This document shows positions 2,916 to 15,460 of a DNA stretch of 26,206 bases, in pieces. The stretch's first letter is position 1, and each line of letters starts with the position of its first letter. This stretch comes from a virus. The stretch spans positions 1 through 26,206 of IMG/VR virus record IMGVR_UViG_3300047388_000255. One strand, given 5' to 3'. The notes under the pieces were generated by a model. The model searched no databases. It was not told the origin of the DNA and saw only the letters and a program-made list of their open reading frames with translations. The position numbers and the translations under genes were made by a program.

Positions 2916-2970
2916 AGTGTTCGTTCATCAATTTTAAAAATTCAACTTGTAATTGAAAAATAAGAACACT
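2916..2970 (+). repeat. AG-N5 / N5-CT hairpin element, copy 1
   Basis: AGTGTTC (2916-2922) pairs GAACACT (2964-2970). It is preceded by TTTCTAA and followed by GATTTA, the conserved flanks of this family. The interior is A/T rich with a small TTCAA/TTGAA helix. It lies just upstream of a tRNA gene. Confidence 0.7.
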
Positions 2971-2983
2971 GATTTATTACAGT

Positions 2984-3059
2984 CGCGGCTGGGGAAGATG
3001 GTAATCCGCTGGTCTCATAAGCCAGAGAAACCAGGTTCGATTCCTGGAGTTCGCAACCA
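2984..3059 (+). tRNA. tRNA-Met(CAT), initiator-like
   Basis: Anticodon arm CTGGT-CTCATAA-GCCAG. The 3' end GCAACCA puts A at position 72 opposite C1, the unpaired C1-A72 feature of bacterial initiator tRNA. The anticodon stem lacks the full three G-C pairs, so initiator identity is likely but not certain. Confidence 0.7.
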
Positions 3060-3066
3060 AACCATT

Positions 3067-3144
3067 GGGGTAGTCGCATAGTGGCCATTGCATCTCCCTG
3101 TCTAGGAGAACCAACCGTGGGTTCGAGTCCCATCTACCTCGCCA
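3067..3144 (+). tRNA. tRNA-Asp(GTC)
   Basis: Acceptor GGGGTAG pairs CTACCTC, discriminator G, CCA. Anticodon loop CTGTCTA. The stop codon of the antisense nuclease gene (3134-3754) falls within the 3' acceptor strand. Confidence 0.85.
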
Positions 3145-3754
3145 CACATTTAGGGAGTCTTATATCAGTTGACCAGATAACTTCTAATTTCGGAACAGAC
3201 TTCCACCGAAGATCATCATCTTGTCTGATATATTTCTTTCCTTTTATTTCCACCCAGGAGTCGTACATGGGTAGATAGAAATCTGGATAATATTTCTTTC
3301 CGGGAAGATATTCGAAGAAGATATCGGTATTTTTGGTCCACGCAATGCTATGTTTATCTAGTAACTTTGCGAATGCCAATTCCGCGCCAGAGTCCATTTG
3401 TTGCCCGTTGTAGATTGAACGATGAACACGGGTCGAATTCGGATGAAAACCGCCAACCTTACCGGCTCTTACATTATATCTGTATTGTTTTATACAGGTA
3501 GTATTTGTGCAACATTTTTTATATCCGCGATGTAATGCATTCCACGTGTAGGGTGTTTTACATATTTCACATTTACAAAATAAAATTTTAATAGAAGTCC
3601 CGTACCCCTTTAATGAGGTAGATACTTTATTTTTACTTTCCTCTGTCCTTACATGGCTATTAGCACATTTTCTAGAACAGTTTTTAGGGATATATCCGTG
3701 TTTGATTGTTGCGGTAAATGGGTTGTTACATTTCTGGCAGATATAGTTAGTCAT
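3134..3754 (-). CDS. PD-(D/E)XK homing endonuclease
   Basis: 206 residues. The N-terminal half carries two zinc-binding modules (CQKC...C, CEIC...C). The C-terminal half has a PD-(D/E)XK core: conserved SGAE helix, then PDFYLP and WVEIKGKK. That fold occurs in a minority of homing endonucleases and in Vsr/TnsA-like nucleases. It ends inside tRNA-Asp on the opposite strand, and a decayed copy of that tRNA's 3' end lies beyond its start codon at 3780-3821, so it probably inserted at the tRNA 3' end. CTAAATA lies a few bases upstream of the ATG, implying a very short leader. Confidence 0.8.
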   Translation of the reverse strand: MTNYICQKCNNPFTATIKHGYIPKNCSRKCANSHVRTEESKNKVSTSLKGYGTSIKILFCKCEICKTPYTWNALHRGYKKCCTNTTCIKQYRYNVRAGKVGGFHPNSTRVHRSIYNGQQMDSGAELAFAKLLDKHSIAWTKNTDIFFEYLPGKKYYPDFYLPMYDSWVEIKGKKYIRQDDDLRWKSVPKLEVIWSTDIRLPKCVAR

Positions 3755-3779
3755 ATTGTATTTAGCAATATTGGGCCAT

Positions 3780-3821
3780 GGTGGGTTCGATTCTTTGGTT
3801 AGTTGTTAATCTACGGCGCCA
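3780..3821 (+). pseudogene. displaced tRNA-Asp 3' remnant
   Basis: Begins GTGGGTTCGA, identical to the tRNA-Asp T-arm, and ends ATCTACGGCGCCA against ATCTACCTCGCCA in the intact gene, with divergent sequence between. I read it as the original 3' end pushed aside by the nuclease gene. Confidence 0.5.
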
Positions 3822-3828
3822 TAACAAT

Positions 3829-3836
3829 GATAAATA
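3829..3836 (+). promoter_or_regulatory. late promoter GATAAATA
   Basis: 23 bases before the ATG at 3860. Confidence 0.65.
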
Positions 3837-3859
3837 TTATATTCTTATAGAGTTATAAT

Positions 3860-4048
3860 ATGAAAAACATAAATGAACTAACCGATAAGAGAAGTGACCT
3901 AGAAAAGCTAGAAGAACTTCACAGAATGCTTCAACAATCACATAAAGATTTCAATACTTGGTTAAATCACGTGAAAGTTAGCCCCGAATTATTACAAATA
4001 ATTAATGATAAATACATATATTGCGGAGACATACATGCCGAAATATAA
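3860..4048 (+). CDS. small hypothetical protein
   Basis: 62 residues starting MKNINELTDKRSD, with a predicted helical, charged N-terminal half. It follows GATAAATA at the standard distance, and its end overlaps both an internal late promoter and the start of the next gene. No recognised domain. Confidence 0.6.
   Translation: MKNINELTDKRSDLEKLEELHRMLQQSHKDFNTWLNHVKVSPELLQIINDKYIYCGDIHAEI
4007..4014 (+). promoter_or_regulatory. internal late promoter GATAAATA
   Basis: Sits within the 3' end of the preceding gene, 20 bases before the ATG at 4035. It would let the downstream pair be transcribed separately. Confidence 0.55.
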
Positions 4049-4268
4049 GGATGTTAGGTTAGAAAGAAGGTTATTGTCTGAAGATCATCCGTGCTACGAG
4101 GAATCAAAAAGATTATCGGAACTACCCACTAGCTTCGAACCTGACGAAACTAAAACATTTATGGAGAATCTAAAATTAAAGTTTATCTTTGATCTTAGAA
4201 GACAAACCTTAAACGAAATAAGACGACTGAAGTCAACTTTTTATAAAGAGACTGGTGAAAATTTATGA
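4035..4268 (+). CDS. small hypothetical protein, paralogue of 2081-2320
   Basis: 77 residues. The ATG at 4035 is preferred over 4005 because GCGGAG lies at ribosome-site distance and GATAAATA at 4007 supplies a promoter. The start MPKYKDVRLERR resembles MIYKDEKLVRR of 2081-2320. It is basic and mostly helical. It overlaps the next gene by ATGA, as its paralogue does. Function unknown. Confidence 0.6.
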   Translation: MPKYKDVRLERRLLSEDHPCYEESKRLSELPTSFEPDETKTFMENLKLKFIFDLRRQTLNEIRRLKSTFYKETGENL

Positions 4269-4573
4269 AAATAAGAGAGTTCACTGATGACGATATATTA
4301 GAATACGCCTTAACACACGGCGGTCGAAACATAAGAAGTGTCTTTAAGGAAGTAGAAGTTGAATATAATCAGATAAAGTTAGATGCAACATCTTTGGTCA
4401 GACATCGCACTTTGATAAACGATCTGAAGAATAGAATATCGATTTTAATTGATAAGATAATTGATTTACATGATCATTGTTTAAAATCTGAGGACGACGA
4501 TGAAACACATAAGGTGGCATCGTCCTTAAAGTCTATGTCCGAAGACTTAAATAAAATTTTTGATAGTATTTAA
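4265..4573 (+). CDS. small hypothetical protein, MKIREF family
   Basis: 102 residues, coupled through ATGA to 4035-4268. It begins MKIREF and ends LNKIFDSI, matching the ends of the 2317-2622 product in pattern and length. Probably helical. This second copy of the two-gene cassette supports co-duplication or co-mobilisation of the pair. Confidence 0.65.
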   Translation: MKIREFTDDDILEYALTHGGRNIRSVFKEVEVEYNQIKLDATSLVRHRTLINDLKNRISILIDKIIDLHDHCLKSEDDDETHKVASSLKSMSEDLNKIFDSI

Positions 4574-4578
4574 TACAC

Positions 4579-4653
4579 GCCCTTTTAGCAGAGTGGTAAT
4601 GCGCCAACCTTGTAAGTTGGATATCGGGAGTTCGATTCTCTCAAAGGGCACCA
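4579..4653 (+). tRNA. tRNA-Thr(TGT)
   Basis: Perfect acceptor GCCCTTT/AAAGGGC plus ACCA. Anticodon arm CCAAC-CTTGTAA-GTTGG. Confidence 0.9.
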
Positions 4654-4658
4654 ATCAT

Positions 4659-4776
4659 ATTTAGTAGAATGTATAATCGGCTTAGAGAGAAGCGTCCTCT
4701 ACACTACTAAATAAGTTTTTGTTAAGTATAAACTACATCTATGAACGGTGAGTTAGTCCGAAAGACTCTACTTAAC
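4659..4776 (+). ncRNA. two adjacent stem-closed RNA segments
   Basis: ATTTAGTAG (4659) is exactly complementary to CTACTAAAT (4704). GTTAAGT (4721) is exactly complementary to ACTTAAC (4770) and encloses an AGTC-CGAAA-GACT hairpin. Neither contains a T-arm or anticodon arm. Unknown family. Confidence 0.4.
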
Positions 4777-4787
4777 ATTTTTATAAT

Positions 4788-4866
4788 CTGGGTATATTGT
4801 CAGCCAGGCCAGACGGCTCGCCTTGGAAGTGAGAGGACGCAGGTTCGAATCCTGCTACCCAGACCA
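4788..4866 (+). tRNA. tRNA-Pro(TGG)
   Basis: Acceptor CTGGGTA/TACCCAG plus ACCA. Anticodon arm CTCGC-CTTGGAA-GTGAG. T-arm GCAGG-TTCGAAT-CCTGC. Confidence 0.88.
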
Positions 4867-4872
4867 AAATTT

Positions 4873-4947
4873 CCCTCTTTAAGTAAGTGGTTATACTAAT
4901 CGGCTGATAACCGGTCATTCCAAGTTCGATTCTTGGCGGAGGGACCA
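4873..4947 (+). tRNA. tRNA-Ile(GAT)
   Basis: Acceptor CCCTCT/GGAGGG, then ACCA. Anticodon arm ATCGG-CTGATAA-CCGGT. T-arm CCAAG-TTCGATT-CTTGG. Confidence 0.85.
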
Positions 4948-4949
4948 GA

Positions 4950-5012
4950 ATTACAATCAGCGTCAACTGATTGTAATAGTTGTATCCACGCATCCTTTGT
5001 AACTGTTGACGC
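4950..5012 (+). ncRNA. hairpin with loop complementary to downstream bases
   Basis: ATTACAATCA (4950-4959) and TGATTGTAAT (4968-4977) form a perfect 10-bp stem. Its whole 8-base loop GCGTCAAC is exactly complementary to GTTGACGC at 5005-5012. This is the geometry of a pseudoknot or of two competing helices. It lies between tRNA-Ile and a degenerate tRNA. Confidence 0.55.
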
Positions 5013-5026
5013 AGGGCATTGGGGGC

Positions 5027-5095
5027 GAACGTATAGCACAATGGCAGTGCTGCGCCCAAATCGGCGTGTGTGGGAGTTCGATTCTCCCTATGTGG
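5027..5095 (+). pseudogene. degenerate tRNA, 3' acceptor end lost
   Basis: A normal D-arm (GCAC-AATGGCA-GTGC) and T-arm (GGGAG-TTCGATT-CTCCC) are present. The anticodon loop has 6 bases without T33, and only five of seven acceptor pairs form. No CCA. Probably a decayed tRNA of the Glu/Ala type. Confidence 0.5.
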
Positions 5096-5128
5096 TTGGA
5101 TTACAACTTCAGAATATTTTTTTTAATT

Positions 5129-5204
5129 GGCTCTATCTTGCTAAGGGTAGGCAGCTGGACCTTCAATCCGGAAATCGCGAGTTCAATTCTCCGTAGAGCT
5201 ACCA
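5129..5204 (+). tRNA. tRNA-Glu(TTC)
   Basis: Acceptor GGCTCTA/TAGAGCT plus ACCA. Anticodon arm CTGGA-CCTTCAA-TCCGG, with C instead of T at position 33. Confidence 0.8.
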
Positions 5205-5209
5205 TTTAT

Positions 5210-5286
5210 GGACGACTAAGGTATTATATCTTACTGACTATCATTGACGTAAGTTGCTCTCGTTCGAATCGATGAGACGTCCACTA
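5210..5286 (+). tRNA. degenerate tRNA-like gene, isotype unclear
   Basis: Acceptor GGACG/CGTCC and T-loop TTCGAAT are present. The best central stem (CTTAC/GTAAG) has a 14-base loop instead of 7. The 3' end reads ACTA rather than NCCA, as in the gene at 11497-11594. Possibly a pseudogene or a tRNA with a tiny insertion. Confidence 0.4.
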
Positions 5287-5300
5287 GATTCTTAAAATAC

Positions 5301-5375
5301 GGGGTGCAAACTTTGACGGTGAAGTCCTGCCTCTTAAGCAGAGAGAACCCATTTCGAGTATGGGGCACCCCGCCA
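5301..5375 (+). tRNA. tRNA-Lys(CTT)
   Basis: Acceptor GGGGTGC/GCACCCC, discriminator G, CCA. Anticodon loop CTCTTAA within CTGC/GCAG. T-arm CCCAT-TTCGAGT-ATGGG. Confidence 0.8.
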
Positions 5376-5487
5376 AATCAATCTGCCTTCCCCGGTCTCT
5401 ATTAAACTATGTCGGACTGGCAGTCCAGTTTTTATCCGTTTTTCGCATCACTAAATTATATAATGCGTATAAACGGAAGCTAATAAT
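5376..5487 (+). other. inter-tRNA spacer with two hairpins
   Basis: GGACT-ggc-AGTCC followed by AGTTTTT could terminate transcription. Just after it, CCGTTT pairs AAACGG around GCAT/ATGC. No ORF or tRNA is seen. Confidence 0.35.
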
Positions 5488-5604
5488 GTCGCTGTATTGT
5501 AAAGGTAACACATCTATGAAGGTGATCCTGTCAAGGATACATACGGCAATCTAAATTCCACGTCAAGGAGTAGATCCGATGTTCGATTCCCGACAGCGGC
5601 ACCA
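5488..5604 (+). tRNA. oversized tRNA-like gene (117 bases)
   Basis: Acceptor GTCGCTG/CAGCGGC plus ACCA bracket a D-arm (TGT/ACA) and a T-loop TTCGATT. The middle is too long for an ordinary tRNA and contains GTCAAGGA twice, 32 bases apart. It may carry a small insertion or be decayed. The isotype cannot be assigned safely. Confidence 0.45.
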
Positions 5605-5672
5605 ATTGACATGTATGTGCATATGCATTAAAGTATAGTGGTAGATTCTCTACATTAAACAGAAAGGCACAC

Positions 5673-6701
5673 ATGAAGGTATATCAAGGACTTGCACGTG
5701 ATCATTCCGGCTCAATGGCAAATATTGCCAAATATGCCGCTCGTGATTACAACGAGAACATCGAATCCATTAGAGAAGGAGCCGAAGCGCACAACATTGA
5801 TACTGTGGTATCTGTTGTGGAACTTGGCTACGGTGACACCGACAAGGTTCGCACAGTTATTGCTAATTCATCAGTCACGGCATTGAAGCCGATTGCCGAA
5901 AATAGCTACAGCGCACGTGGATGTGGTACTCCGTTGTTTGATGCAGTTGGTGAGCTGGTGGAGCAACTCCAAGCGGTTCCCGATGCAGACAATCCCACCG
6001 TTTCCTTTGTGGTGTTTACTACCACCGATGGCGGAGAGAACGCCAGCAGGAAGTATTCGGGCGCAACGATTGCGAAGCTGATCAAGAATCTGCAAATGAC
6101 CGATCGTTGGACGTTTGTGTTCCGTGTTCCGCAGGGCTATAAGCATCAGCTTACCCAATACGGTATTCCGGAAGGCAACATCCAAGAATGGGAACAATCG
6201 GAGCGCGGTTTGGCTGTGTCGACAGTCGCTACCAAGAGTGCTTTCCGTGGCTTTTATGCTGCGAAGGCTGCTGGTATCAACGCAACTGATAAGTTCTACG
6301 CGGACTTGAGCACAGTTTCCTTGAAGGAAGTGAAGGGCGCATTGGTTGACATCTCCAAGCAAGTTGATGTCTACGAAGTGGATGCTGCCAACGATGGCGC
6401 ACAAATCCGTGACTTCGTGAATGACCAAGGCATTACCTTTGTGAAGGGTTGTGCGTTCTACGAGCTGAAGAAGACTGAAACTGTTCAAGGCTACAAGCAA
6501 ATTGCCATTCGTGATAAGACGACTGGTGCTGTTTACAGTGGTTTCAATGCACGTGACTTGCTTGGTCTGCCGCATACCGGTGACGTGAAGCTTGCCCCGG
6601 GTAACCATGCCAACTACGAAATCTACGTGCAATCCACGTCGGTCAACCGTAAGTTGACAAAGGGGATGGGATTGATGATTTGGATTAACGTTCCGGCGTA
6701 A
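5673..6701 (+). CDS. von Willebrand factor A-domain protein
   Basis: 342 residues. The MIDAS metal-binding motif D-x-S-x-S is seen as DHSGSM (10-15), with the conserved Thr in GTPLFDA (about 86) and Asp in TTDGGE (about 119). The C-terminal half has no assignment. VWA proteins bind partners through a divalent cation; in phages the partner is unknown. AAAGG precedes the ATG. The gene is clearly less A/T rich, with more GC-ending codons, than nearly everything else here, and lies alone between tRNAs. This suggests high expression or a different origin. No signal peptide. Confidence 0.85.
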   Translation: MKVYQGLARDHSGSMANIAKYAARDYNENIESIREGAEAHNIDTVVSVVELGYGDTDKVRTVIANSSVTALKPIAENSYSARGCGTPLFDAVGELVEQLQAVPDADNPTVSFVVFTTTDGGENASRKYSGATIAKLIKNLQMTDRWTFVFRVPQGYKHQLTQYGIPEGNIQEWEQSERGLAVSTVATKSAFRGFYAAKAAGINATDKFYADLSTVSLKEVKGALVDISKQVDVYEVDAANDGAQIRDFVNDQGITFVKGCAFYELKKTETVQGYKQIAIRDKTTGAVYSGFNARDLLGLPHTGDVKLAPGNHANYEIYVQSTSVNRKLTKGMGLMIWINVPA

Positions 6702-6703
6702 TG

Positions 6704-6711
6704 GATAAATA
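6704..6711 (+). promoter_or_regulatory. late promoter GATAAATA
   Basis: 21 bases before the ATG at 6733, with GAGGATAA as ribosome site between. Confidence 0.65.
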
Positions 6712-6732
6712 TTGTTATCTGAGGATAACAAT

Positions 6733-7383
6733 ATGCCCAAAAAAACATTACTCTCGTTCATCCGCCGGGTTATATCAATTCTGACATGGCCATCGGCTAT
6801 TAAGATTTTAATAATTTTTTGCATATTCTTTCTGGGTTTAATATCCCTGGGATTTAAAGATCAGATCTTTAATACCCGTTCCTCGGGTAAATTATCACTC
6901 GATAAACCCCCGTTGGAATTGTCTAAGGATGGACTTGATGCAATAGAACGCATTGTTAGGAAATCTGATTTGGTAGTTGGTATTGGCTTAGTGTCTGTGA
7001 ATTTTCAACAAAATTCTAGACGTATAATTTATTTTAATTCCGACAATGCAGAATTTGTTAGACTACACGATGAATATGTAAGAACACATATTTCAGTCGA
7101 TCAGCCGTTGTTTAACGATGATCAGGATAATAACAAAAGAATAATTAAGTTGATAAATGGTGATGTTATTTGCACAAAATATACAACGACGTTAACATAT
7201 AAATATGCGCCTAATGTCGGTATTGATACAACTTGTATCTATGGAGTTCCGCCATATTATGGTCAATTCCGTGGATTTATTGTTGTCTATTTACAAACAG
7301 AACCAACATCGTTAGAATTTGATCAGGTTAAGATTCTGTTAAGGGATTTATCGACTAGATTAGATAATCCTAAGTCGAAATAG
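6733..7383 (+). CDS. single-pass membrane protein of unknown function
   Basis: 216 residues from the ATG at 6733, preceded by GAGGA. A basic N-terminus (MPKKTLLSFIRR) is followed by one hydrophobic segment (about residues 22-42). The rest is a soluble domain probably facing the periplasm, with two Cys (ICTK and TTCIYG). The last third (GQFRGFIVVYLQTEP) looks like a mixed alpha/beta fold. Expressed from its own late promoter. Family not recognised. Confidence 0.7.
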   Translation: MPKKTLLSFIRRVISILTWPSAIKILIIFCIFFLGLISLGFKDQIFNTRSSGKLSLDKPPLELSKDGLDAIERIVRKSDLVVGIGLVSVNFQQNSRRIIYFNSDNAEFVRLHDEYVRTHISVDQPLFNDDQDNNKRIIKLINGDVICTKYTTTLTYKYAPNVGIDTTCIYGVPPYYGQFRGFIVVYLQTEPTSLEFDQVKILLRDLSTRLDNPKSK

Positions 7384-7561: not shown

Positions 7562-8374
7562 TTAAAATAGCGAATTAATTATAATTTGTTCTTTAGATTT
7601 ATTCTTGTATTCTTTATGAGAAACACGAATAACATCCCAGCCTCTTGTGCATAGATATGCATCTCGTATGACATCGAGTGCTTTGCGTTTTGGTTCTAGA
7701 TGGTGTGTTCCATCTAATTCGATAATTAACTTCTTTTTAGGGAAAACAAAATCAGCCCTTCCCCATTTATTAGTATATGGATTGAAGAATTTAACCTCCA
7801 TTAAATATCCATGCAGGGAATTAGTCATTCCTTTTGATTTTAACCATTCTTCAAATGATCTCTCCATGTAGGATTGTTTGTATGGATTTCGATTTAATTT
7901 ATGGCTAGGAGTAATTGATATATAAGATTTCATTTTTCGACTTACAAGTTTTGACTTACAGTCTTTTGAACAAGTTTTAGATCTTTTATTTTTTATTAAA
8001 GTGCCGCATATTACGCACCAAGAGATCGGACATATAAGCTTTTTACCGAGTAGTGCCGATGAAATTTTATCTTTTGTTTCTTGTGTAGGGCCACTTTTAT
8101 TAGAATTGTTGTATGTAGCTGAACACGAACATGAACAGAATTTATAATTTTTATTATCATATGTGAGTGAAATGCCGCATTGGTGACAGTAATTAGGGTT
8201 TTCGATATATTCTAAAATTAATTTTAATTTAGTTTGCATTGCTTTTAGTTTTAACTGAGTTCCGCTGTGGGAACTAGAACAGGAAAGATTGCAGAATATT
8301 TTCTTTGTATGATTTAGCGGAACTTCGAAAGATGAATCGCATTGGCAACACTTGCGATAAATAGGATTAGCCAT
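7562..8374 (-). CDS. zinc-finger endonuclease, DUF559/Vsr-like PD-(D/E)XK
   Basis: 270 residues. Three Cys-rich modules (CCQC...C, CHQC...C, CVIC...C) precede a restriction-endonuclease-like domain with RADFVF (acidic metal ligand), KLIIELDG and a terminal GWDVIRVS strand, the pattern of DUF559/Vsr-type nucleases. A run resembling NUMOD repeats (TQETKDKISSALLG) lies in the middle. AAAGGAC precedes the ATG. The gene runs antisense into tRNA-Gly(TCC) and is bracketed by 14-base direct repeats of that tRNA's 3' end, so it is a mobile insertion. The leader from the promoter at 8440 contains a perfect 14-bp hairpin. Confidence 0.8.
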   Translation of the reverse strand: MANPIYRKCCQCDSSFEVPLNHTKKIFCNLSCSSSHSGTQLKLKAMQTKLKLILEYIENPNYCHQCGISLTYDNKNYKFCSCSCSATYNNSNKSGPTQETKDKISSALLGKKLICPISWCVICGTLIKNKRSKTCSKDCKSKLVSRKMKSYISITPSHKLNRNPYKQSYMERSFEEWLKSKGMTNSLHGYLMEVKFFNPYTNKWGRADFVFPKKKLIIELDGTHHLEPKRKALDVIRDAYLCTRGWDVIRVSHKEYKNKSKEQIIINSLF

Positions 8375-8834: not shown

Positions 8835-9114
8835 TCCGATATAGCACAGCGGTAGTGCAGGTGACTGTTTTTAATGGCAGCTTTTATCTGAAAGGATAAT
8901 TGAAAAATTCGTCAAATTCGGTGAACCCTAAGTACAGAAATGTATATGGTAACGCCGAGCCAAGCTTCATATAGAAATATATGTTGAAGGTGTAGAGACT
9001 AGACGGCGAATATCTAAGTCGAAAGATATGATAATGGCATAGTCCACGCTACTATGAAAATAGTAGATTAGTGTAATCACTTGGTCAGGAGTTCGAATCT
9101 TCTTATCGGAGCCA
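8835..9114 (+). tRNA. tRNA-Asn(GTT) with group I intron
   Basis: Exon 1 is 8835-8868 and exon 2 is 9074-9114. Joined, they give a 75-base tRNA with acceptor TCCGATA/TATCGGA, discriminator G, CCA, and anticodon loop CTGTTAA (GTT). The intron interrupts the anticodon between its second and third bases; the run of T leaves the exact junction ambiguous by a few bases. Confidence 0.85.
8869..9073 (+). mobile_element. group I self-splicing intron
   Basis: About 205 bases with a recognisable catalytic core: a Q-like GGTAACGCCGAGCC, R-element GAGACTAGACGG and S-element GGCATAGTCC, so that P7 pairs GACTA with TAGTC. Exon 1 ends in T and the intron ends in G, as required for group I splicing. It carries no endonuclease ORF. 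Confidence 0.85.
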
Positions 9115-9644: not shown

Positions 9645-9701
9645 GCCCAAGTGGTGGAATAGTAGACATCGTAAAAATAACGATATATGTTTACCGTGCA
9701 G
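9645..9701 (+). pseudogene. 5' part of a tRNA-Leu-like gene
   Basis: GCCCAAGTGGTGGAAT-x-AGTAGACA matches the characteristic start of tRNA-Leu. An ATCGT/ACGAT stem follows, then CCGTGCAG where the T-stem should begin; there the HNH gene leader takes over. No matching 3' half is obvious downstream. Confidence 0.5.
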
Positions 9702-9725
9702 ATAAGTAACATAAGGGAGATCTTT

Positions 9726-10547
9726 ATGTTGTGTGATTATGGATGTAAACAAGAGGCAAATTTTGTCCTTAAAAATGGAAAACATTGTTGTAGTAAGAGC
9801 ACTAGTTCTTGCCAGAGTATTAAGTCTAAAAATTCTAAAGGTGGATTAAAATCTTACAAAGATGGTGATAGAAAATCTGGAAAAGATCAATATAATGATT
9901 TGCCGCAAGCAACAAAAGATAGCATGAATTGTCGTAAGGGAGTTTTGATACTTACCGATGATACATTTACATACGGTGGAAAAGGCAACCATAAAAAATT
10001 ATTGCTAGCAGAGCGGGGCTATAAATGTGAGGAATGTAATCTTATAGAATGGATGAAGAAACCAATTCCGTTAGAACTTGAGCACGTCGATGGTGATGGG
10101 AAAAATAATGTTAGAGAAAACCTGAAACTGCTTTGTTGTAATTGTCATGCTCAAACGCCTACTTGGCGCAGAAAGAAAGTCACTTTAGAGAATAATGCGA
10201 GATATACTGATGATGTAATGATAGAAGCAATTCAGAATTCTTATAGCATGCACGGTGTTTTGAAATTATTAGATTTAAGGTGGGGAAGTAATTCCACTAT
10301 TCGGCGTGTGATGAAACAATATAATATTGAATTTAAACAGAAAGAAGTAAAAGAAAAATTTATTGAAGTATTGCCTGCTATTGAAAAAGTTATACGTCGG
10401 GTTGATACTAAAAATTCTCAATATGGCACTTGTTGGGTATGTAATTTGACCTTACAGTGCAATAGAAAAATAAAGATTGAAGAACTAGAAAAGTATATAA
10501 ATGATGGATGGTTAAAAACCCGATCAATGGTATTTAAGATGGGATAG
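9726..10547 (+). CDS. HNH endonuclease
   Basis: 273 residues from the ATG at 9726, preceded by AAGGGAG; an earlier in-frame ATG at 9687 lies within the tRNA-Leu fragment and is unlikely. The core is a textbook zinc-supported HNH: CEEC (about 101-104), LELEHVDGDGKNN (117-128), ENLKLLCCNCH (131-141). A short Cys-rich motif begins the protein (CDYGC) and another, CWVCNLTLQC, lies near the end. It nicks or cuts DNA; homing is likely given its position in a broken tRNA-Leu gene. It is the only array endonuclease on the plus strand. Confidence 0.88.
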   Translation: MLCDYGCKQEANFVLKNGKHCCSKSTSSCQSIKSKNSKGGLKSYKDGDRKSGKDQYNDLPQATKDSMNCRKGVLILTDDTFTYGGKGNHKKLLLAERGYKCEECNLIEWMKKPIPLELEHVDGDGKNNVRENLKLLCCNCHAQTPTWRRKKVTLENNARYTDDVMIEAIQNSYSMHGVLKLLDLRWGSNSTIRRVMKQYNIEFKQKEVKEKFIEVLPAIEKVIRRVDTKNSQYGTCWVCNLTLQCNRKIKIEELEKYINDGWLKTRSMVFKMG

Positions 10548-10646: not shown

Positions 10647-10760
10647 AGGATACTTGCAGCAATGTCTTAAACGACAGTTGGTTCAATTCCAACATTATGA
10701 TTTGCATAATACGCTCAATGGTTGAGCAATGGACTCATAATCCATAATTAACAGTATCCT
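10647..10760 (+). tRNA. circularly permuted tRNA with CAT anticodon
   Basis: Order of parts: T-arm GTTGG-TTCAATT-CCAAC (10677-10693), 3' acceptor strand ATTATG plus A (10694-10700), four bases, 5' acceptor strand CATAAT (10705-10710), D-arm GCTC-AATGGTT-GAGC (10713-10727), anticodon arm ATGGA-CTCATAA-TCCAT (10729-10745). The acceptor strands are exactly complementary over 6 bp but face inward. The outer ends pair as AGGATAC/GTATCCT. CCA is not encoded. Met or lysidine-type Ile are both possible. Confidence 0.75.
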
Positions 10761-10774: not shown

Positions 10775-10870
10775 AGGATGGGTTCAGCCATACAAATTCG
10801 CAAACTTTGCGGCCCGCCCAGTTGGGGCGTGGCAATAGGGTTCGATTCCCGGTCTATAGCCAAACATCCT
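10775..10870 (+). repeat. AG-N5 / N5-CT element enclosing a T-arm-like hairpin
   Basis: AGGATG (10775-10780) pairs CATCCT (10865-10870), with family flanks TTTCTAA and GATTTA. Inside lie a GC-rich hairpin (CGCCC/GGGCG) and GGG-TTCGATT-CCC extended by ATAG/CTAT and followed by GCCA. It looks like a tRNA top half without a visible anticodon arm. Confidence 0.5.
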
Positions 10871-10885: not shown

Positions 10886-11062
10886 AGGTTCGCTTCAGCA
10901 CTAAATTAATCTTTCTTCCAAAAAGAAGATCTAGGTTCGAATCCTAGCAGTAGAGTTGGTCACTACTGTCGTCTAATGGTCGGATATAAATGCGAACCTG
11001 TTTTGAATTCTGGTAAGACTATGTTAATATTACCCTTTAACTAGGGCATCACTTCCGAGCCT
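10886..11062 (+). tRNA. second circularly permuted tRNA
   Basis: T-arm CTAGG-TTCGAAT-CCTAG, then 3' acceptor CAGTAG plus A, eight bases, 5' acceptor CTACTG, a D-arm like GTCTAATGGTCGGA, and an anticodon arm CCTGT-TTTGAAT-TCTGG. By position the anticodon is TGA, but two stem mismatches make the identity unsure. The outer ends pair as AGGTTCG (10886-10892) with CGAGCCT (11056-11062), followed by GA as in the repeat family. Extra hairpins flank both halves. Confidence 0.65.
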
Positions 11063-11174: not shown

Positions 11175-11180
11175 AGTTTT

Positions 11181-11287: not shown

Positions 11288-11299
11288 AATTAATTTTAT

Positions 11300-11389
11300 G
11301 TATCGTTGGCCGAGAGTACGAAGGCAGCGGCTTGCAACACCGAAGTGGATAAAATCCCCACGCTGGTTAGAATCCAGCACGATACTCCA
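11300..11389 (+). tRNA. tRNA-Cys(GCA)-like with long variable arm
   Basis: Acceptor GTATCGT/ACGATAC, discriminator T, CCA. Anticodon loop TTGCAAC reads GCA; the weak stem rests on a CGG/CCG core. A GTGGA/TCCCAC variable arm is unusual for Cys. Discriminator T favours Cys over Ser. Confidence 0.6.
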
Positions 11390-11407
11390 GCATTTAATAA
11401 ATAATAT

Positions 11408-11484
11408 CCGCAAGTGACGTAACAGGAAACCGTGTTAGTTTCAAACACTAGATTTTGTGAGTTCGAATCTCACCTTGCGGACCA
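11408..11484 (+). tRNA. tRNA-Leu(CAA)
   Basis: Acceptor CCGCAAG/CTTGCGG plus ACCA. The best anticodon arm is TTAGT-TTCAAAC-ACTAG (CAA), leaving a 5-base variable loop before GTGAG-TTCGAAT-CTCAC. A competing GTGTT/AACAC stem would frame a loop without T33. Confidence 0.65.
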
Positions 11485-11496
11485 AAGTTACAATAT

Positions 11497-11594
11497 GGGT
11501 AGTAAATGGGAGTATTTGGGTTCGAATCCCAATTAAGTATGGTACTAAAATGTCGACGGACGCTCGGTAGGTTCAATTCCTCCACTATCCACTA
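11497..11594 (+). tRNA. type II tRNA-like, probable Ser(CGA)
   Basis: Acceptor GGGTAGT/ACTATCC. The central hairpin TTGGG-TTCGAAT-CCCAA reads as an anticodon arm (CGA) although it resembles a T-arm. A second T-arm TAGG-TTCAATT-CCT follows a long variable arm. The D-arm is minimal and the 3' end is ACTA. Alternative assignments are possible. Confidence 0.45.
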
Positions 11595-11748
11595 AAGTCA
11601 ACGGGCCGTAAAGAAGTCACTAAATTATACACCTTTTTGTGTCCACCATTTGCAGAACTTAGGTAATTTATATAAAATATAGCAATGCTTAAGAGTTTAC
11701 ATTAATATGCTATTAGAATGATGTTGCGGAATAGTGAAAAAATTTTTA

Positions 11749-11822
11749 CGGTCTTTAGTTTAAAGGCAAAACACTCTCCTTACAAGTGAGATACGGCGGA
11801 TCGTTACCGTCAAGACCGACCA
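11749..11822 (+). tRNA. tRNA-Val(TAC)
   Basis: Acceptor CGGTCTT/AAGACCG plus ACCA. Anticodon arm CTCTC-CTTACAA-GTGAG. T-loop ATCGTTA is atypical. Confidence 0.8.
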
Positions 11823-11826
11823 GAAT

Positions 11827-11877
11827 ATGGAAGTTAATAGTTAATAGTAAAATGTTCGACCTTCTAATCAGGTACCA
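11827..11877 (+). pseudogene. tRNA 5' fragment, Arg(TCT)-like
   Basis: A D-arm-like AGTTAATAGTAAAAT is followed by CTTCTAA, the usual tRNA-Arg(TCT) loop. The sequence then stops resembling a tRNA and a small ORF cassette begins. Confidence 0.3.
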
Positions 11878-11879
11878 AT

Positions 11880-11887
11880 GATAAATA
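11880..11887 (+). promoter_or_regulatory. late promoter GATAAATA
   Basis: 23 bases before the ATG at 11911, with GGGAGAG between. Confidence 0.65.
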
Positions 11888-11910
11888 TTTGCAGTATACG
11901 GGAGAGTATA

Positions 11911-12075
11911 ATGCAAAGACAAATAAAAAACGAAGAACAAATGATTGCTTTTTGTGAAGAACAGATTACATGGTTAAAAGAATTTAAAAAATCTCGCCAG
12001 CAATTTATAAAAGAAAATTTATCCGAGGACGAATTAATCGAATATAGGGTTGTCGTTGAGGATAATAATGAATGA
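11911..12075 (+). CDS. small hypothetical protein
   Basis: 54 residues, starting at the ATG that follows GGGAGAG and a late promoter. Charged and helical (MQRQIKNEEQM...ITWLKEFKKSRQQF). Coupled by a 4-base overlap to the next gene. First member of the third two-gene cassette in the array. No known domain. Confidence 0.6.
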   Translation: MQRQIKNEEQMIAFCEEQITWLKEFKKSRQQFIKENLSEDELIEYRVVVEDNNE

Positions 12076-12344
12076 GAATTTTTGAAATTGAAAACATAAA
12101 TCGTGCTATAATTGCGTTGAAGAGATTATCTGAAGACTACGAAGCTGAATTTATTGAATTATATAATGATTTAACACTATTTAAAAGACTAAAGGGTGGG
12201 CGATTAAATAATTTTGTAGATGATAAGATAATACCGTTTAGAGAAAAATTAAAAGATTTTCTATCTACGCAGTTTTATGATGATCCAGATATAGATAAGA
12301 TAAAAGCAAGATTGCAGAAAATGTTAGAATTATTAGAAGTTTAA
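12072..12344 (+). CDS. small hypothetical protein, MRIFEI family
   Basis: 90 residues starting MRIFEIENINRA, similar in position, length and opening residues to the products of 2317-2622 and 4265-4573. Acidic, probably all helical, rich in Leu, Glu and Lys. Function unknown. Confidence 0.65.
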   Translation: MRIFEIENINRAIIALKRLSEDYEAEFIELYNDLTLFKRLKGGRLNNFVDDKIIPFREKLKDFLSTQFYDDPDIDKIKARLQKMLELLEV

Positions 12345-12349
12345 ATTAT

Positions 12350-12442
12350 GGAAGTGCAAGCCAATTGGAGATGGCATCTGTCTTGAAAACAGCCGAGCGT
12401 TTAAATGGCGCCTTGAGGGTTCGACTCCGTCCACTTCCGCCA
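12350..12442 (+). tRNA. tRNA-Ser(TGA)
   Basis: Perfect acceptor GGAAGTG/CACTTCC, discriminator G, CCA. Anticodon loop CTTGAAA within CTGT/ACAG. Long variable arm of a type II tRNA. Confidence 0.88.
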
Positions 12443-12449
12443 ATATAAT

Positions 12450-12523
12450 GCGTGGTTAATTTAATGGTAAAATGTAAGGTTGCCAACTTTACTTCAAGGG
12501 TTCGATTCCCTTACCACGCTCCA
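12450..12523 (+). tRNA. tRNA-Gly(GCC)
   Basis: Acceptor GCGTGGT/ACCACGC, discriminator T, CCA. Anticodon arm TAAGG-TTGCCAA-CTTTA. Confidence 0.85.
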
Positions 12524-12531
12524 AAATTTAA

Positions 12532-12585
12532 AGAATGCGTTCAGCAATTTAAAAATCAAAATTGAAAATTGAAAATAAGCATTCT
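12532..12585 (+). repeat. AG-N5 / N5-CT hairpin element, copy
   Basis: AGAATGC (12532-12538) pairs GCATTCT (12579-12585). TTTAA precedes and GATAT follows; TTCAGCAA follows the left arm. Directly upstream of a tRNA-like gene. Confidence 0.7.
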
Positions 12586-12595
12586 GATATATTTA

Positions 12596-12664
12596 ATTCT
12601 TGTAGTCTAATGGAAAGATATGTGACATACCAGACACGATGTGGGTTCGATTCCTGCCAAGGAT
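12596..12664 (+). pseudogene. degenerate tRNA-like gene
   Basis: Acceptor ATTCTTG/CAAGGAT, D-arm GTCT-AATGGAA-AGAT and T-arm GTGGG-TTCGATT-CCTGC are sound. The anticodon loop has 6 bases (ATACCA), the variable loop is short, and CCA is absent. Possibly a decayed Val or Gln gene. Confidence 0.45.
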
Positions 12665-12669
12665 TTTGC

Positions 12670-12763
12670 GGACGATAGAAGTGTATCCTAGGTTAGCACA
12701 CAAATCACTGGTTCATATTTGGCCCAGCAATGGGCCGTGGTTCGAATCCATCATCGTCCGCCA
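12670..12763 (+). tRNA. type II tRNA-like, abnormal anticodon loop
   Basis: Acceptor GGACGAT/ATCGTCC, discriminator G, CCA, and a perfect variable arm GCCCA/TGGGC. The central stem CAAAT/ATTTG holds an 11-base loop; its middle seven bases CTGGTTC would read GGT. Isotype unsure. Confidence 0.5.
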
Positions 12764-12771
12764 GTTTCTAA

Positions 12772-12803
12772 AGGGTACAGTCCACAAATCCAGAAGGTAT
12801 CCT
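12772..12803 (+). repeat. AG-N5 / N5-CT hairpin element, shortest copy
   Basis: AGGGTAC (12772) pairs GTATCCT (12797). TTTCTAA precedes and GATTA follows. The interior is only 18 bases, showing that just the arms and flanks are constant. Confidence 0.65.
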
Positions 12804-12833
12804 GATTATTTTATCGCGTTGTGGCAGAGTTGA

Positions 12834-12907
12834 GGTCGGTTAGGTAAGTGGTATACTATTAGTTTCATACGCTGATTTCGCAAGTTCGATTCTTGCACCG
12901 ACTACCA
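12834..12907 (+). tRNA. tRNA with CAT anticodon (Met or Ile2)
   Basis: Acceptor GGTCGGT/ACCGACT plus ACCA. Anticodon arm TTAGT-TTCATAC-GCTGA. Elongator Met and lysidine-modified Ile cannot be told apart here. Confidence 0.8.
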
Positions 12908-12927
12908 CAATTTCGTTTAATGGATAT

Positions 12928-13008
12928 GCGACTGTATACCCTCACGCTACGAACGTGTTGAAAGGTTAGTTTGGAAACATGTAGGTTCGAGTCCTATCGG
13001 TCGCTCCA
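12928..13008 (+). tRNA. tRNA-Arg(ACG), D-arm reduced
   Basis: Acceptor GCGACTG/CGGTCGC, discriminator T, CCA. Anticodon arm CACG-CTACGAA-CGTG. Only eight bases separate acceptor and anticodon stem, while the variable region is about 24 bases, the same odd proportions as tRNA-Tyr at 974. Confidence 0.65.
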
Positions 13009-13194
13009 ATAATAAAATTTGGAAATGTATAGAATTTTTTCTTTTTATATACTGTTGCACACAATTGGTGCATTGACTATGCCCCCAACGCAAGCATAGC
13101 AGTCCCTAATAATACTAATATCGTATAAGAAGTATGCTGAGATTAAGTGAGATCAGGTAGATAGTTTAAGAATTTTGGATGATTGACAGAGTTT
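13009..13194 (+). other. spacer with GACTATGC hairpin
   Basis: Contains a strong hairpin (GACTATGC with GCATAG-c-AGTC) near 13075-13110. No gene is seen. Confidence 0.3.
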
Positions 13195-13283
13195 GGAAAG
13201 TAAATTAAACGGGGTTTAAGGCAACCTGCTAAGTTGTTCGTTCACATTTTGTGGATTCGGGTCGGTACCGATGCTTTCCTCCA
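13195..13283 (+). tRNA. tRNA-Ser(GCT)
   Basis: Acceptor GGAAAGT/GCTTTCC, discriminator T, CCA. Anticodon arm CAAC-CTGCTAA-GTTG. Long variable region. The 3' 68 bases are also the antisense end of a truncated HNH gene. T-loop GTCGGTA is atypical. Confidence 0.75.
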
Positions 13284-13530
13284 AATATTTATCAACTAAT
13301 GAAACAAGTTCTGTATAGATTAATGACGATTTAGTATATTTAGTTTTATTTTCAGAATGTTCCATTAATTGGCAATTCAATGAGTGAGAAATATAGAATG
13401 GGTCATATTCATTTTTAATAGCTTCATTTATAGATATTTTATGATCTCTTGAAATTCCGTTGTTATTTTTAGGAATTCTATTACCCGGGGAATACCAGCC
13501 GAATTTTTGTATCAGGGAGAAGTCAAACAA
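13216..13530 (-). pseudogene. truncated HNH endonuclease, C-terminal domain
   Basis: 104 residues resembling the C-terminal domain of the 1049-1852 protein: FDFSLIQKFGWYSPG matches FDLSLVEKYGWFSPN, followed by NGISRDH, ISHSLNCQLMEH and a K-rich segment. The zinc-finger N-terminal part is absent and no ribosome site is evident, so it is probably a remnant. The last 22 codons are antisense to tRNA-Ser(GCT), giving an odd tail (GTDPNPQNVNEQLSRLP). Confidence 0.6.
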
Positions 13531-13596
13531 ATTTGAATCAGACAGGATAGATTCGATAAAATAGACACGAAGTCCTGGCTAAACCCTCAAAATAAA

Positions 13597-14223
13597 TTAC
13601 CAATTTTCTAAAAGTTTACCTTCGAGATTTAGTACAAATTTATATCCAAGTGACTTATAAGAAGACATTTTATCTCTCATTTCCCTATCATTGAGCCAAT
13701 AGTTAGATTTAACTTCTACTATTGTGTTTGTATCGGGGAGATAAAAATCTGGAATTGCTATTCGATAGCGCCTTTCTATAGTATTAAAATATTTTATCCT
13801 CATATGTTCTACTAGATATTTTGTTTTCTCTATATCTAATATCTTAGCGTAATTTTCTTCGTACGACGATCTTAAACAAAATATTTCACCAAACCAGGCA
13901 GTGTGATAGATATGCTTATATCGTATTGAATTATGTATTTGTGCCCTATTCTGTAATAATGCATTTTGCATACCTTCCGAGTATGATCTAGGTTCAATAT
14001 CAAATAATCGAAATATTATGTTCATTGTTCGTGTACTTGGAATATTAAATTTTTTCATTAATGATAACATTGATTCACACTTGATGTGATATTCAGAATA
14101 TAACATAGATTGAATTTTAAGAAATTCAGATTCAGTATTATTATCAAAATTAAATCCTAATTTGATTAAATTTTTGGACTTTCGTTGATAAAATTGACTT
14201 TTAATGAAGTTTTGTAGTAACAT
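13597..14223 (-). CDS. PD-(D/E)XK homing endonuclease
   Basis: 208 residues. The N-terminal half is helical, with no zinc finger. The C-terminal half has EENYAKILD, then AIPDFYLPDTNTIVEVKSNYW, the PD-(D/E)XK active-site pattern also seen at 3134-3754, and a final GYKFVLNL strand. It stands between tRNA-Ser(GCT) with its HNH remnant and tRNA-Lys(TTT), so two endonucleases seem to have colonised one site in succession. GATAAATA sits six bases before the ATG, predicting a leaderless or near-leaderless transcript. Confidence 0.78.
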   Translation of the reverse strand: MLLQNFIKSQFYQRKSKNLIKLGFNFDNNTESEFLKIQSMLYSEYHIKCESMLSLMKKFNIPSTRTMNIIFRLFDIEPRSYSEGMQNALLQNRAQIHNSIRYKHIYHTAWFGEIFCLRSSYEENYAKILDIEKTKYLVEHMRIKYFNTIERRYRIAIPDFYLPDTNTIVEVKSNYWLNDREMRDKMSSYKSLGYKFVLNLEGKLLENW

Positions 14224-14229
14224 ATATTT

Positions 14230-14237
14230 TATTTATC
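14230..14237 (-). promoter_or_regulatory. late promoter GATAAATA abutting the start codon
   Basis: Minus-strand octamer only six bases before the ATG at 14223. Confidence 0.6.
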
Positions 14238-14263
14238 AGATTAAAATAATTTTTAACCAATTT

Positions 14264-14338
14264 GGGACTATGGCGTAGCGATAACGCATCGGTCTTTTAC
14301 ACCGTAAGTCCTGGGTTTGAATCCCAGTGGTCCCACCA
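14264..14338 (+). tRNA. tRNA-Lys(TTT)
   Basis: Acceptor GGGACTA/TGGTCCC plus ACCA. Anticodon arm CGGT-CTTTTAC-ACCG. T-arm CTGGG-TTTGAAT-CCCAG. Confidence 0.85.
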
Positions 14339-14348
14339 AAATTTCTAA

Positions 14349-14399
14349 AGAGTGTATTCAGCATACAAAATCAATTTGAAAACTTGAAAAACACACTCT
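14349..14399 (+). repeat. AG-N5 / N5-CT hairpin element, copy
   Basis: AGAGTGT (14349) pairs ACACTCT (14393). TTTCTAA precedes; ATTCAGCA follows the left arm and GACTA the right arm. It lies in the leader region of the next CDS. Confidence 0.7.
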
Positions 14400-14419
14400 G
14401 ACTATATAAAGGAAATGAT

Positions 14420-14797
14420 ATGTCACACTATATCGCAATTATTACAAGCAAGGATTACTATTCGGGATATGAGCACGATGAACGCGACATTCTCATTACA
14501 AGTATTACTGATTGGTATGAAGTTACTGATGACGAATACAAGGCACTTCGTGCAGCTCAATCGCGCCTTGGATACATGATACTTGAGCGCCCGACAGACA
14601 TGAAGGTATTTGTTGCTAAGACTGTTGCAGATTATCTTGCTTATGCTAAGGCAGAAGAGAAGAGAATGGCAGCAGAGAAGGAAGCAAGAGAGAATGCCGC
14701 AATTGAACGTAAGATCAAAAAGGAACTTAAAGATAAGGCATCTAAGCTTAAGATGTTTGAAAAATTAAAGGCCGAACTTGGCCAGGAAGCATCCTAA
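14420..14797 (+). CDS. hypothetical protein with C-terminal coiled coil
   Basis: 125 residues, with AAAGGA before the ATG. The N-terminal 75 residues (MSHYIAIITSKDYYSGYEHDE...) form a mixed fold; residues about 75-120 are a Lys/Glu/Ala-rich helix, likely coiled coil. Less A/T rich than the endonuclease genes. No family recognised and no membrane segment or signal. Confidence 0.7.
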   Translation: MSHYIAIITSKDYYSGYEHDERDILITSITDWYEVTDDEYKALRAAQSRLGYMILERPTDMKVFVAKTVADYLAYAKAEEKRMAAEKEARENAAIERKIKKELKDKASKLKMFEKLKAELGQEAS

Positions 14798-15183
14798 GAA
14801 GCTGACCTGTATGTGCTACAGCGGTGGTATACTAGACGGAGCCGTTGAAGTCTCTACATTATTAGGTTGATCTTGCTCACCTGCTATAGCCGGTGATATA
14901 CTGTTGCATATGTACTGCAATAGTTGACTATGTTAGCAGAATCTGGGCGATATTAACTGTTTTGGTATACGCCCTCCGTTTTTTGGTATATAGAATCACA
15001 TAGAATCTGCTACGGAAGGATTAGCTACCTTGCGTTCTCAGTGGACATGTGGAAAAATTTTAGACGAGCTAATCTACTCATGCTAGTGTTGGGCGCATCC
15101 TAACACAGGCACCAGGGTCTCGGGAATTCGCGATAAATCTAGCTGCTATGACGCGTGAAAGTAGATTATATACCATTTTTTGT
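14798..15183 (+). ncRNA. 386-base gene-free tract, candidate structured RNA
   Basis: Long-range complements: TAGCAGA (14934) with TCTGCTA (15006) enclosing GGGCG/CGCCC; GGATTAGCT (15018) with AGCTAATCT (15067); GTGTT with AACAC; ATCTA with TAGAT. No ORF or tRNA is seen. The first ten bases match the start of E. coli RNase P RNA, but the conserved RNase P core is not present. Confidence 0.4.
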
Positions 15184-15260
15184 GCCCTTATACGCTAATT
15201 GGTAGTGCGCGCAGTCCTAAACACTGTGGGTTGTAGGTTCGAATCCAACTAAGGGTACCA
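15184..15260 (+). tRNA. tRNA-Leu(TAA)
   Basis: Acceptor GCCCTTA/TAAGGGT plus ACCA. Anticodon arm GCAGT-CCTAAAC-ACTGT, with C at position 33. Short variable loop, as in the other Leu tRNAs here. Confidence 0.75.
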
Positions 15261-15265
15261 TTTTT

Positions 15266-15392
15266 AAAATAAGCCGAATATGCCTGGAAGAGTATTAGTG
15301 ATAGCATCCAAATAAGTCTGGATCTTTGTAAATTCTCTTGGCTAGCGATTGAAAACAGCAGAGAATATCTGCCATCTATTGATGCTTATTTT
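15266..15392 (+). ncRNA. candidate RNA closed by a perfect 9-bp helix
   Basis: AAAATAAGC (15266) is exactly complementary to GCTTATTTT (15384). Inside are ATCCA/TGGAT and ATTCTCT/AGAGAAT hairpins. Unknown family. Confidence 0.4.
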
Positions 15393-15401
15393 AATTTTTA
15401 A

Positions 15402-15460
15402 AGAATCCATTCCGCAACTCAAATGAAATTCAACTTGTAATTGAAAATAAAACGGATTCT
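15402..15460 (+). repeat. AG-N5 / N5-CT hairpin element, copy
   Basis: AGAATCC (15402) pairs GGATTCT (15454). The interior shares TTCAACTTGTAATTGAAAA with copy 1 at 2916. Just upstream of tRNA-Gln. Confidence 0.7.

What the first reader, a model, noticed from the sequence alone, without database searches (positions are those of the whole stretch)
2916..15460. Eight-copy covarying hairpin family among the tRNAs
At 2916, 10647, 10775, 10886, 12532, 12772, 14349 and 15402 a left arm AG-N5 is complementary to a right arm N5-CT, mostly with TTTCTAA just before and GA-TTTA after, and TTCAGCA following most left arms. The N5 differs in nearly every copy yet stays paired, strong evidence for RNA selection. 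Interiors range from 18 bases to a whole permuted tRNA. It may be a processing tether, a mobile RNA or an uncharacterised small RNA.
Basis: seen in the sequence. Interest (0 to 1): 0.88.

Follow-up and report, generated by a model that had tools for sequence, protein, structure and literature searches.

The report
Phage Y-RNA-like RNAs carrying tRNA mimics
The eight look-alike hairpins belong to a widespread, apparently undescribed family of small phage RNAs that hold a tRNA-like piece on a closed stem and sit beside a phage Ro60-like gene, so phages seem to make their own version of the Y RNAs that Ro60 proteins bind; an amoeba RNA class thought to be unique shares the same stem.

Summary
All eight copies exist, with flanks looser than quoted. 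Motif scans that did not use the arms found many more phage copies: the complementary right arm plus CTG follows in 71 of 281 motif occurrences, against 4 of 281 with N5 reversed. Consensus: AAG-N5-N-U(U/A)CAGCAA-insert-N5-CUG. Inserts are tRNA mimics: anticodon stem-loops with canonical loops (strict form 22 of 69, shuffles 1.0) or tRNAs in permuted order (14, shuffles 0). The RNAs cluster in phage tRNA arrays and beside a DUF2828 gene, present in 26/47 hairpin-bearing records against 4/35 others. The DUF2828 model has the Ro60 fold (Z 18.5). Permuted inserts match Rfam YrlA over its tRNA-like domain, below cut-off. Best reading: phage Y-RNA-like RNAs with a new Ro-binding stem. The same stem anatomy defines Dictyostelium Class I RNAs, reported as unique to dictyostelids. 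E. coli K-12 phages carry intact sets. Protein binding, RNA ends and function are inferred; the 26-kb record itself lacks DUF2828, its closest relative has it.

The parts
2916..2970 (+). Element 1: arms 2916-2922/2964-2970, motif GTTCATCA, insert hairpin TTCAA-CTTGTAA-TTGAA (anticodon-loop-like, UGU)
   Evidence: (71.3 bits)
10647..10760 (+). Element 2: arms 10647-10653/10754-10760 around a permuted tRNA: T arm 10677-10693, acceptor 3' strand 10694-10700, acceptor 5' strand 10704-10710, D arm 10713-10727, anticodon arm 10729-10745 (loop CTCATAA); break in the variable loop
   Evidence: z -4.35; strand boundaries read by eye
10775..10870 (+). Element 3: 6-bp arms AGGATG/CATCCT; insert with a T-arm-like and a D-arm-like piece; counterparts in L040 and L047
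   Evidence: 35.0 bits
10886..10999 (+). Element 4: arms 10886-10892/10993-10999; permuted tRNA: anticodon arm 10910-10926 (loop CTTCCAA), T arm 10931-10947, acceptor 3' strand 10948-10954, linker 10955-10961, acceptor 5' strand 10962-10968, D arm 10969-10985; break at the D/anticodon junction
   Evidence: boundaries read by eye
12532..12585 (+). Element 5: arms 12532-12538/12579-12585, motif GTTCAGCA, short insert
   Evidence: RF01414 28.6 bits; 61.7 bits
12772..12803 (+). Element 6: arms AGGGTAC/GTATCCT (one G-U), 18-nt insert, shortest copy
   Evidence: 32.0 bits
14349..14399 (+). Element 7: arms AGAGTGT/ACACTCT, motif ATTCAGCA, short insert; same arms and flank at L048 7257, same left arm at L062 12208
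   Evidence: 65.2 bits
15402..15460 (+). Element 8: arms AGAATCC/GGATTCT, insert hairpin TTCAA-CTTGTAA-TTGAA, directly before tRNA-Gln
   Evidence: (77.7 bits)

Best explanation
The hairpins are phage-encoded Y-RNA-like noncoding RNAs. Each RNA has a stem made by its own two ends (AAG-N5 ... N5-CUG) plus a conserved single-stranded U(U/A)CAGCAA beside the stem; this is the handle. I infer that the handle is the binding site of the phage's DUF2828 protein, which has the Ro60 fold. The loop carries a tRNA mimic: an anticodon stem-loop, or a tRNA body entered from its anticodon side, so that its parts appear in permuted order and its acceptor end is closed. By analogy with bacterial YrlA and Rsr, the mimic would either recruit a tRNA-binding enzyme to the Ro ring (PNPase in Deinococcus) or occupy a host tRNA-cutting nuclease; the frequent Lys-UUU anticodon loops fit the second use. 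The RNAs probably leave the long tRNA transcript when the flanking tRNAs are cut out, and N5 can vary because the protein would read the helix and the fixed letters at its ends. Shown: the family, its covariation, the tRNA-like inserts, the gene association, the predicted Ro60 fold of the partner. Inferred: binding, RNA ends, and any effect on RNA decay or tRNA nucleases.
For: Arms pair far above control in scans that ignored them. Anticodon-loop inserts 22 of 69 strict, shuffles 1.0. Permuted tRNA inserts 14, shuffles 0, while ordinary tRNAs parse in direct order. DUF2828 in 26/47 hairpin-bearing against 4/35 other records (p 3e-5), often within a few hundred bases, same strand. Cultured phages chosen by DUF2828 alone carry elements near the gene. 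DUF2828 model: the ten best VIA-align matches are all Ro60/Rsr/TROVE, Z 14.3-18.5, lone vWA domains 10.6; Foldseek top six all Ro60. Rfam YrlA matches permuted inserts over its tRNA-like domain, up to 43.5 bits, and on the window's relative 35.8 bits. YrlA anatomy from PMC8394870.
Against: No transcript, binding or genetic data. The window record holds no DUF2828 gene (a 26-kb fragment; relative G003 has one). 21 of 47 hairpin-bearing records lack DUF2828; many are fragments, but G008 (123 kb) and G043 (127 kb) also lack it. Some DUF2828 phages (Astolliot, Clautastrophe) showed no element near the gene. YrlA scores stay below the family cut-off and the YrlA model rings weakly in 13 of 14 control genomes.
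Confidence: 0.8

Rival explanations
1. The long elements are circularly permuted tRNA genes whose ends are joined at the handle and whose acceptor loop is cut, giving working tRNAs; the short ones are remnants.
For: Complete acceptor, D and T arms in permuted order; some keep canonical anticodon loops (window 10886 and 10647; L287 CTGTTAA); a few L466 copies have CCA after the acceptor strand.
Against: Many long copies have no recognisable anticodon loop, L439 and L466+761 lack the anticodon arm, and L466+905 has no ordinary acceptor. Short copies carry only the anticodon stem-loop. Breaks lie at several positions but always within the same handle, which no single known splicing rule explains.
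Confidence: 0.07
2. Stand-alone decoys for host anticodon nucleases, with no Ro-like partner.
For: Canonical anticodon loops, Lys-UUU commonest; loops differ between phages in the same slot.
Against: Strong association with the Ro60-fold gene; inserts with no anticodon loop. Not exclusive with the best explanation: the decoy may be the mimic's task.
Confidence: 0.07
3. Passive spacers or processing signals between tRNAs.
For: Several copies lie directly between two tRNAs (for example L131 7593-7661).
Against: Most tRNA pairs lack one; a spacer needs neither a conserved CAGCAA nor tRNA-shaped inserts; many copies lie beside DUF2828 and not between tRNAs.
Confidence: 0.04
4. A mobile RNA or DNA element.
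For: Several copies per genome with variable interiors.
Against: Four copies keep the same four slots in ten Felix-O1-type phages and relatives; the arms vary while flanks are fixed, the reverse of terminal repeats. Target duplications were not looked for.
Confidence: 0.02

Closest known systems
Bacterial Y RNA YrlA (Rfam RF02553) with Rsr/Ro60
   Same: Stem made by the two RNA ends, tRNA-like domain in permuted order, gene next to a Ro60-fold gene; tRNA-like domain matches by covariance model.
   Different: Different binding stem (AAG-N5, CAGCAA, CUG), score below the YrlA cut-off, many copies per genome, and a new insert type that shows only an anticodon stem-loop.
Dictyostelium Class I RNA (Rfam RF01414)
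   Same: AAG start, CUG(U) end, covarying short stem, CAGCAA motif beside the 5' stem, variable rest, about 40-65 nt for the short members.
   Different: One letter less between stem and CAGCAA; below the family cut-off (36 against 41.5 bits); found in phages, in tRNA arrays, with tRNA-like inserts; no DUSE promoter looked for.
Phage Ro-like proteins (Thermus phage phiLo Ro60, PDB 9l5y; mycobacteriophage 'Ro-like RNA binding protein')
   Same: Ro60 fold; the mycobacteriophage protein is a DUF2828 relative.
   Different: No RNA partner of the DUF2828 type was found described in the papers searched.
Circularly permuted tRNA genes (algae, archaea; from general knowledge)
   Same: 3' half encoded before the 5' half.
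   Different: Break at several places of the tRNA, always inside the same handle; anticodon often missing.

Membership tests
Ro60-associated Y RNAs (broad class) | Stem formed by the RNA's 5' and 3' ends | tested here: met
   (ends themselves inferred)
Ro60-associated Y RNAs (broad class) | Encoded near a Ro60-fold protein gene | tested here: met
   for the window only through its relative G003
Ro60-associated Y RNAs (broad class) | Bound by the Ro protein | not testable with these tools
   needs binding experiments
YrlA (RF02553) | tRNA-like domain in YrlA order | tested here: met
   permuted elements only, 35.8-43.5 bits over model 23-89
YrlA (RF02553) | Score over the family cut-off (69 bits) | tested here: not met
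   best 43.5 bits
Dictyostelium Class I RNA (RF01414) | AAG...CUG ends, covarying stem, CAGCAA motif | tested here: met
   spacing differs by one letter
Dictyostelium Class I RNA (RF01414) | Score over the family cut-off (41.5 bits) | tested here: not met
   best 36 bits
Dictyostelium Class I RNA (RF01414) | DUSE promoter about 60 nt upstream | not tested
   eukaryotic promoter, not expected in a phage
Permuted tRNA genes | 3' half before 5' half with complete arms | tested here: met
   14 elements by strict rules
Permuted tRNA genes | Joined halves give a canonical anticodon loop | tested here: inconclusive
   clear in some (window 10886), absent in others such as L439
TROVE proteins (PF05731), for the partner | Match to the TROVE sequence profile | tested here: not met
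   0 of 43 records; the predicted fold nevertheless agrees with Ro60

The most novel reading that the evidence does not exclude
Phage handle RNAs and dictyostelid Class I RNAs are one Ro-type RNA class, each bound by a DUF2828 Ro60-like protein. A class held to be unique to social amoebae would then be a Y-RNA relative shared with phages, and the phage members would be a fast-changing set of tRNA mimics presented by a viral Ro particle against host tRNA-targeting defences.
Probability: 0.35. Interest if true: 0.96.

Novelty: new variant of a known kind. Interest (0 to 1): 0.9.

Why it matters
DUF2828 genes occur in 681 of 50,697 phage records, among them KVP40 and Felix-O1-type, Listeria and Campylobacter phages, mostly without a named function. 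This work gives them a likely fold and RNA partner. It explains odd 'tRNA-OTHER' and over-long tRNA calls in phage tRNA arrays, and why those arrays carry tRNA-shaped RNAs that cannot decode. It offers dictyostelid Class I RNAs, abundant and of unknown mechanism, a candidate class of protein partner. It can be tested at once in E. coli K-12 phages.

Tried and rejected
Single-motif counts in the window: no excess over chance. Known RNA families: no Rfam match to the hairpins at gathering score; weak SNORD, miRNA and DsrA matches are noise. Close DNA relatives among GenBank phages: none. Bacterial genomes: 1 of 129 motif hits paired, judged chance. TROVE profile: nothing. ARAGORN on doubled elements was only partly useful, as it allows introns in the anticodon loop alone. 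The vWA protein inside the window's tRNA array (5673-6701) was first suspected as partner; it has no Pfam match and relatives in phages such as Caulobacter Cr30 that were not checked for elements, so nothing ties it to the RNAs. attC sites, IS200/REP, box C/D and bulge-helix-bulge ideas were dropped by inspection only. Literature: ten searches found no description of these RNAs, but key Y RNA papers (PMC4201824, PMC6047535, PMC10870794) are not held, so an earlier mention cannot be excluded.
Full report
What was checked. The window is a whole 26,206-base IMG/VR record holding a dense phage tRNA array (17 ARAGORN tRNAs), a group I intron and a permuted tmRNA. Always present are AG..CT and the G after it.

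Is it more than chance? I scanned viral contigs with flank and motif only, so the right arm was free. In the two broader scans 30 of 122 and 41 of 159 motif occurrences are followed by the complementary arm plus CTG; with N5 reversed the numbers are 2 and 2; in bacterial genomes 1 of 129. A covariance model of 27 short copies finds 52 matches in 15 phage records, up to 80 bits, in the larger records mostly in or near tRNA clusters. Pair statistics are extreme, with the caveat that those copies were chosen for pairing. A strict scanner gives 2 hits in 700 kb of shuffled sequence. Selection on a stem is established.

Anatomy. Consensus: A-AG-N5-N-U(U/A)CAGCAA-insert-N5-CU-G. In short members the insert is a hairpin. 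Of 69 distinct inserts, 45 have a 7-base loop on a stem of four or more pairs (shuffles 19.8), 28 have U and A where an anticodon loop has U33 and A37 (shuffles 2.7, largest 8), and 22 read [C/U]UNNNAA (shuffles 1.0, largest 5). The loop stems vary while staying paired (UCAA/UUGA, UUGA/UCAA, UUCA/UGAA, UACA/UGUA, UAGA/UCUA), and Lys-UUU is the commonest triplet, 8 of 24. Elements in the slot before tRNA-Gln carry different loops in different phages. In long members the insert is a tRNA in permuted order: 14 of 48 meet strict rules (full T arm, acceptor of six or more pairs, D-loop GG), no shuffled insert does, and ordinary tRNAs of the window come out in direct order (9 of 14 direct, 1 permuted). 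Breaks fall at the D/anticodon junction (window 10886), the variable loop (10647) or the anticodon loop (for example L305, L403, L466), and in L466+905 the handle stands where the acceptor should be (break points read by eye). Window 10647 folds into handle plus T arm, closed acceptor, D arm and anticodon arm, z -4.35. A further insert type carries a conserved CUUUCYGGAGGGGAAAG-AAAAACUCGCC.

The partner. Directly downstream of seven elements in L466 lies a 520-aa ORF with DUF2828 and DUF7788. DUF2828 is over its cut-off in 26 of 47 hairpin-bearing records and in 4 of 35 records of similar kind without paired hairpins; three of those four have matches of identical score and are probably one phage (p 3e-5, or 1e-5 after removing near-duplicates). 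Elements often lie within a few hundred bases of the gene on the same strand. The 26-kb window has no such gene, but its closest relative G003 (vWA protein 89% identical) has one with two elements just upstream (L492). A 22-sequence alignment gave a model with mean pLDDT 79.7. All six Foldseek hits below 0.001 are Ro60. VIA-align ranks ten Ro60/Rsr/TROVE structures first, Z 14.3-18.5 over 372-410 residues; lone vWA domains follow at 10.6. A sequence profile search also finds TROVE and Ro60 chains weakly (E 0.015 to 0.92), while the TROVE Pfam profile finds nothing in the records. Mycobacteriophage annotators already call the gene Ro-like.

The RNA class. YrlA is described as a stem of the RNA's two ends that tethers Rsr, plus a domain resembling tRNA D, T and acceptor arms that binds PNPase (PMC8394870). 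Rfam YrlA matches permuted elements over positions 23-89 of 114 in that order, 35.8-43.5 bits for the clearest ones, inside elements beside DUF2828 (for example G003 87650-87708, G039 2156-2235, G001 128450-128510). It stays below 69 bits, and the model rings at E<=1 in 13 of 14 control genomes, so its low scores mean nothing. I therefore say the RNAs are built and placed like YrlA but do not file them as YrlA.

Unbiased check in cultured phages. Among phages picked by DUF2828 alone, elements lie near the gene in Cronobacter S13, Citrobacter Ci1, Campylobacter F348, Listeria LP-083-2, E. coli dune, Aeromonas LAh_6 (seven) and SUSP1 (four); shuffles give 1.6 looser hits per 101 kb. KVP40, Astolliot and Clautastrophe showed none in the fetched stretch, though KVP40 has a Class-I-like match in its tRNA array. 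In ten Felix-O1-type phages and relatives four slots keep handle and motif while inserts diverge.

Dictyostelium. Rfam RF01414 was the one non-tRNA family that repeatedly hit the short copies end to end. Published features of Class I RNA are AAG start, CUGU end, a covarying stem and an 11-nt motif beside the 5' stem, and the class was reported absent outside dictyostelids (PMC7919456); the Rfam consensus reads CUUACAGCAA there. Phage scores reach 36 bits, below 41.5. In phages chosen without the motif the best E-values are 3e-4 (dune), 6e-4 (KVP40) and 4e-3 (Listeria); records with the motif but no paired arm give nothing below 0.02. Common descent and convergence on one Ro-type binding site are both open. 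Whether dictyostelids have a DUF2828 protein could not be tested here.

Mechanism. Shown: the RNA family, its tRNA-mimic inserts, and its association with a gene of predicted Ro60 fold. Inferred: release from the tRNA transcript, binding of the handle by DUF2828, and the use of the mimic, either to recruit a tRNA-binding enzyme to the Ro ring as in the Deinococcus RNA decay machine, or to occupy tRNA-cutting nucleases, an idea already raised for YrlA (PMC7790460). I put 0.8 on the Y-RNA-like class and well under half on either specific use.

Noticed in passing
window 24873-25550 (+): A release-factor-like gene (GGQ motif) with an in-frame TGA after codon 38, near where prfB genes carry a programmed frameshift; possible recoding or a broken gene.
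   Followed up: partly
window 5480-5605 (+); L014 reverse strand 140-330: A tRNA-like gene holds GATCCTGTCAAGGATACATACGGCAA (ATCCTGAAAAGGATACATACAGCAA in L014): the same stem and motif but closed by a short loop inside a tRNA in direct order, as if the family's two ends were joined.
   Followed up: partly
L123 reverse strand 16098, L129 reverse strand 16288, L273 reverse strand 1718, L326 400-508, L362 149-280: A conserved insert type, CUUUCYGGAGGGGAAAG-AAAAACUCGCC, possibly a pseudoknot, in elements beside DUF2828 genes; no Rfam match.
   Followed up: partly
window 8857-9066 (+) and 25696-25907 (+): Group I intron in the tRNA array and a permuted tmRNA over Rfam cut-off.
   Followed up: no
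L009 reverse strand 11895: A related element with AAG-N4 arms holds a permuted tRNA whose loop reads CTCTAAG (CUA, an amber-reading anticodon); several records also carry ARAGORN tRNA-Pyl (CTA) calls.
   Followed up: no
L543 6809-8020 (Listeria phage LP-083-2); L537 2262-3521 (Serratia phage BF): An RtcB-like ligase and an RNA ligase gene lie near DUF2828, echoing bacterial rsr-rtcBA operons.
   Followed up: no
L553 920-1050 (phage REP6); L533 5896-6138 (Cronobacter phage S13): Public records annotate stretches overlapping these elements as over-long tRNA-Thr, tRNA-Ser or tRNA-OTHER.
   Followed up: partly
window 3134-3754, 7562-8374, 13597-14223 (-) and 9687-10547 (+): Possible endonuclease-type genes inserted among the tRNAs (DUF559 on 7562-8374, otherwise weak or no matches).
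   Followed up: no
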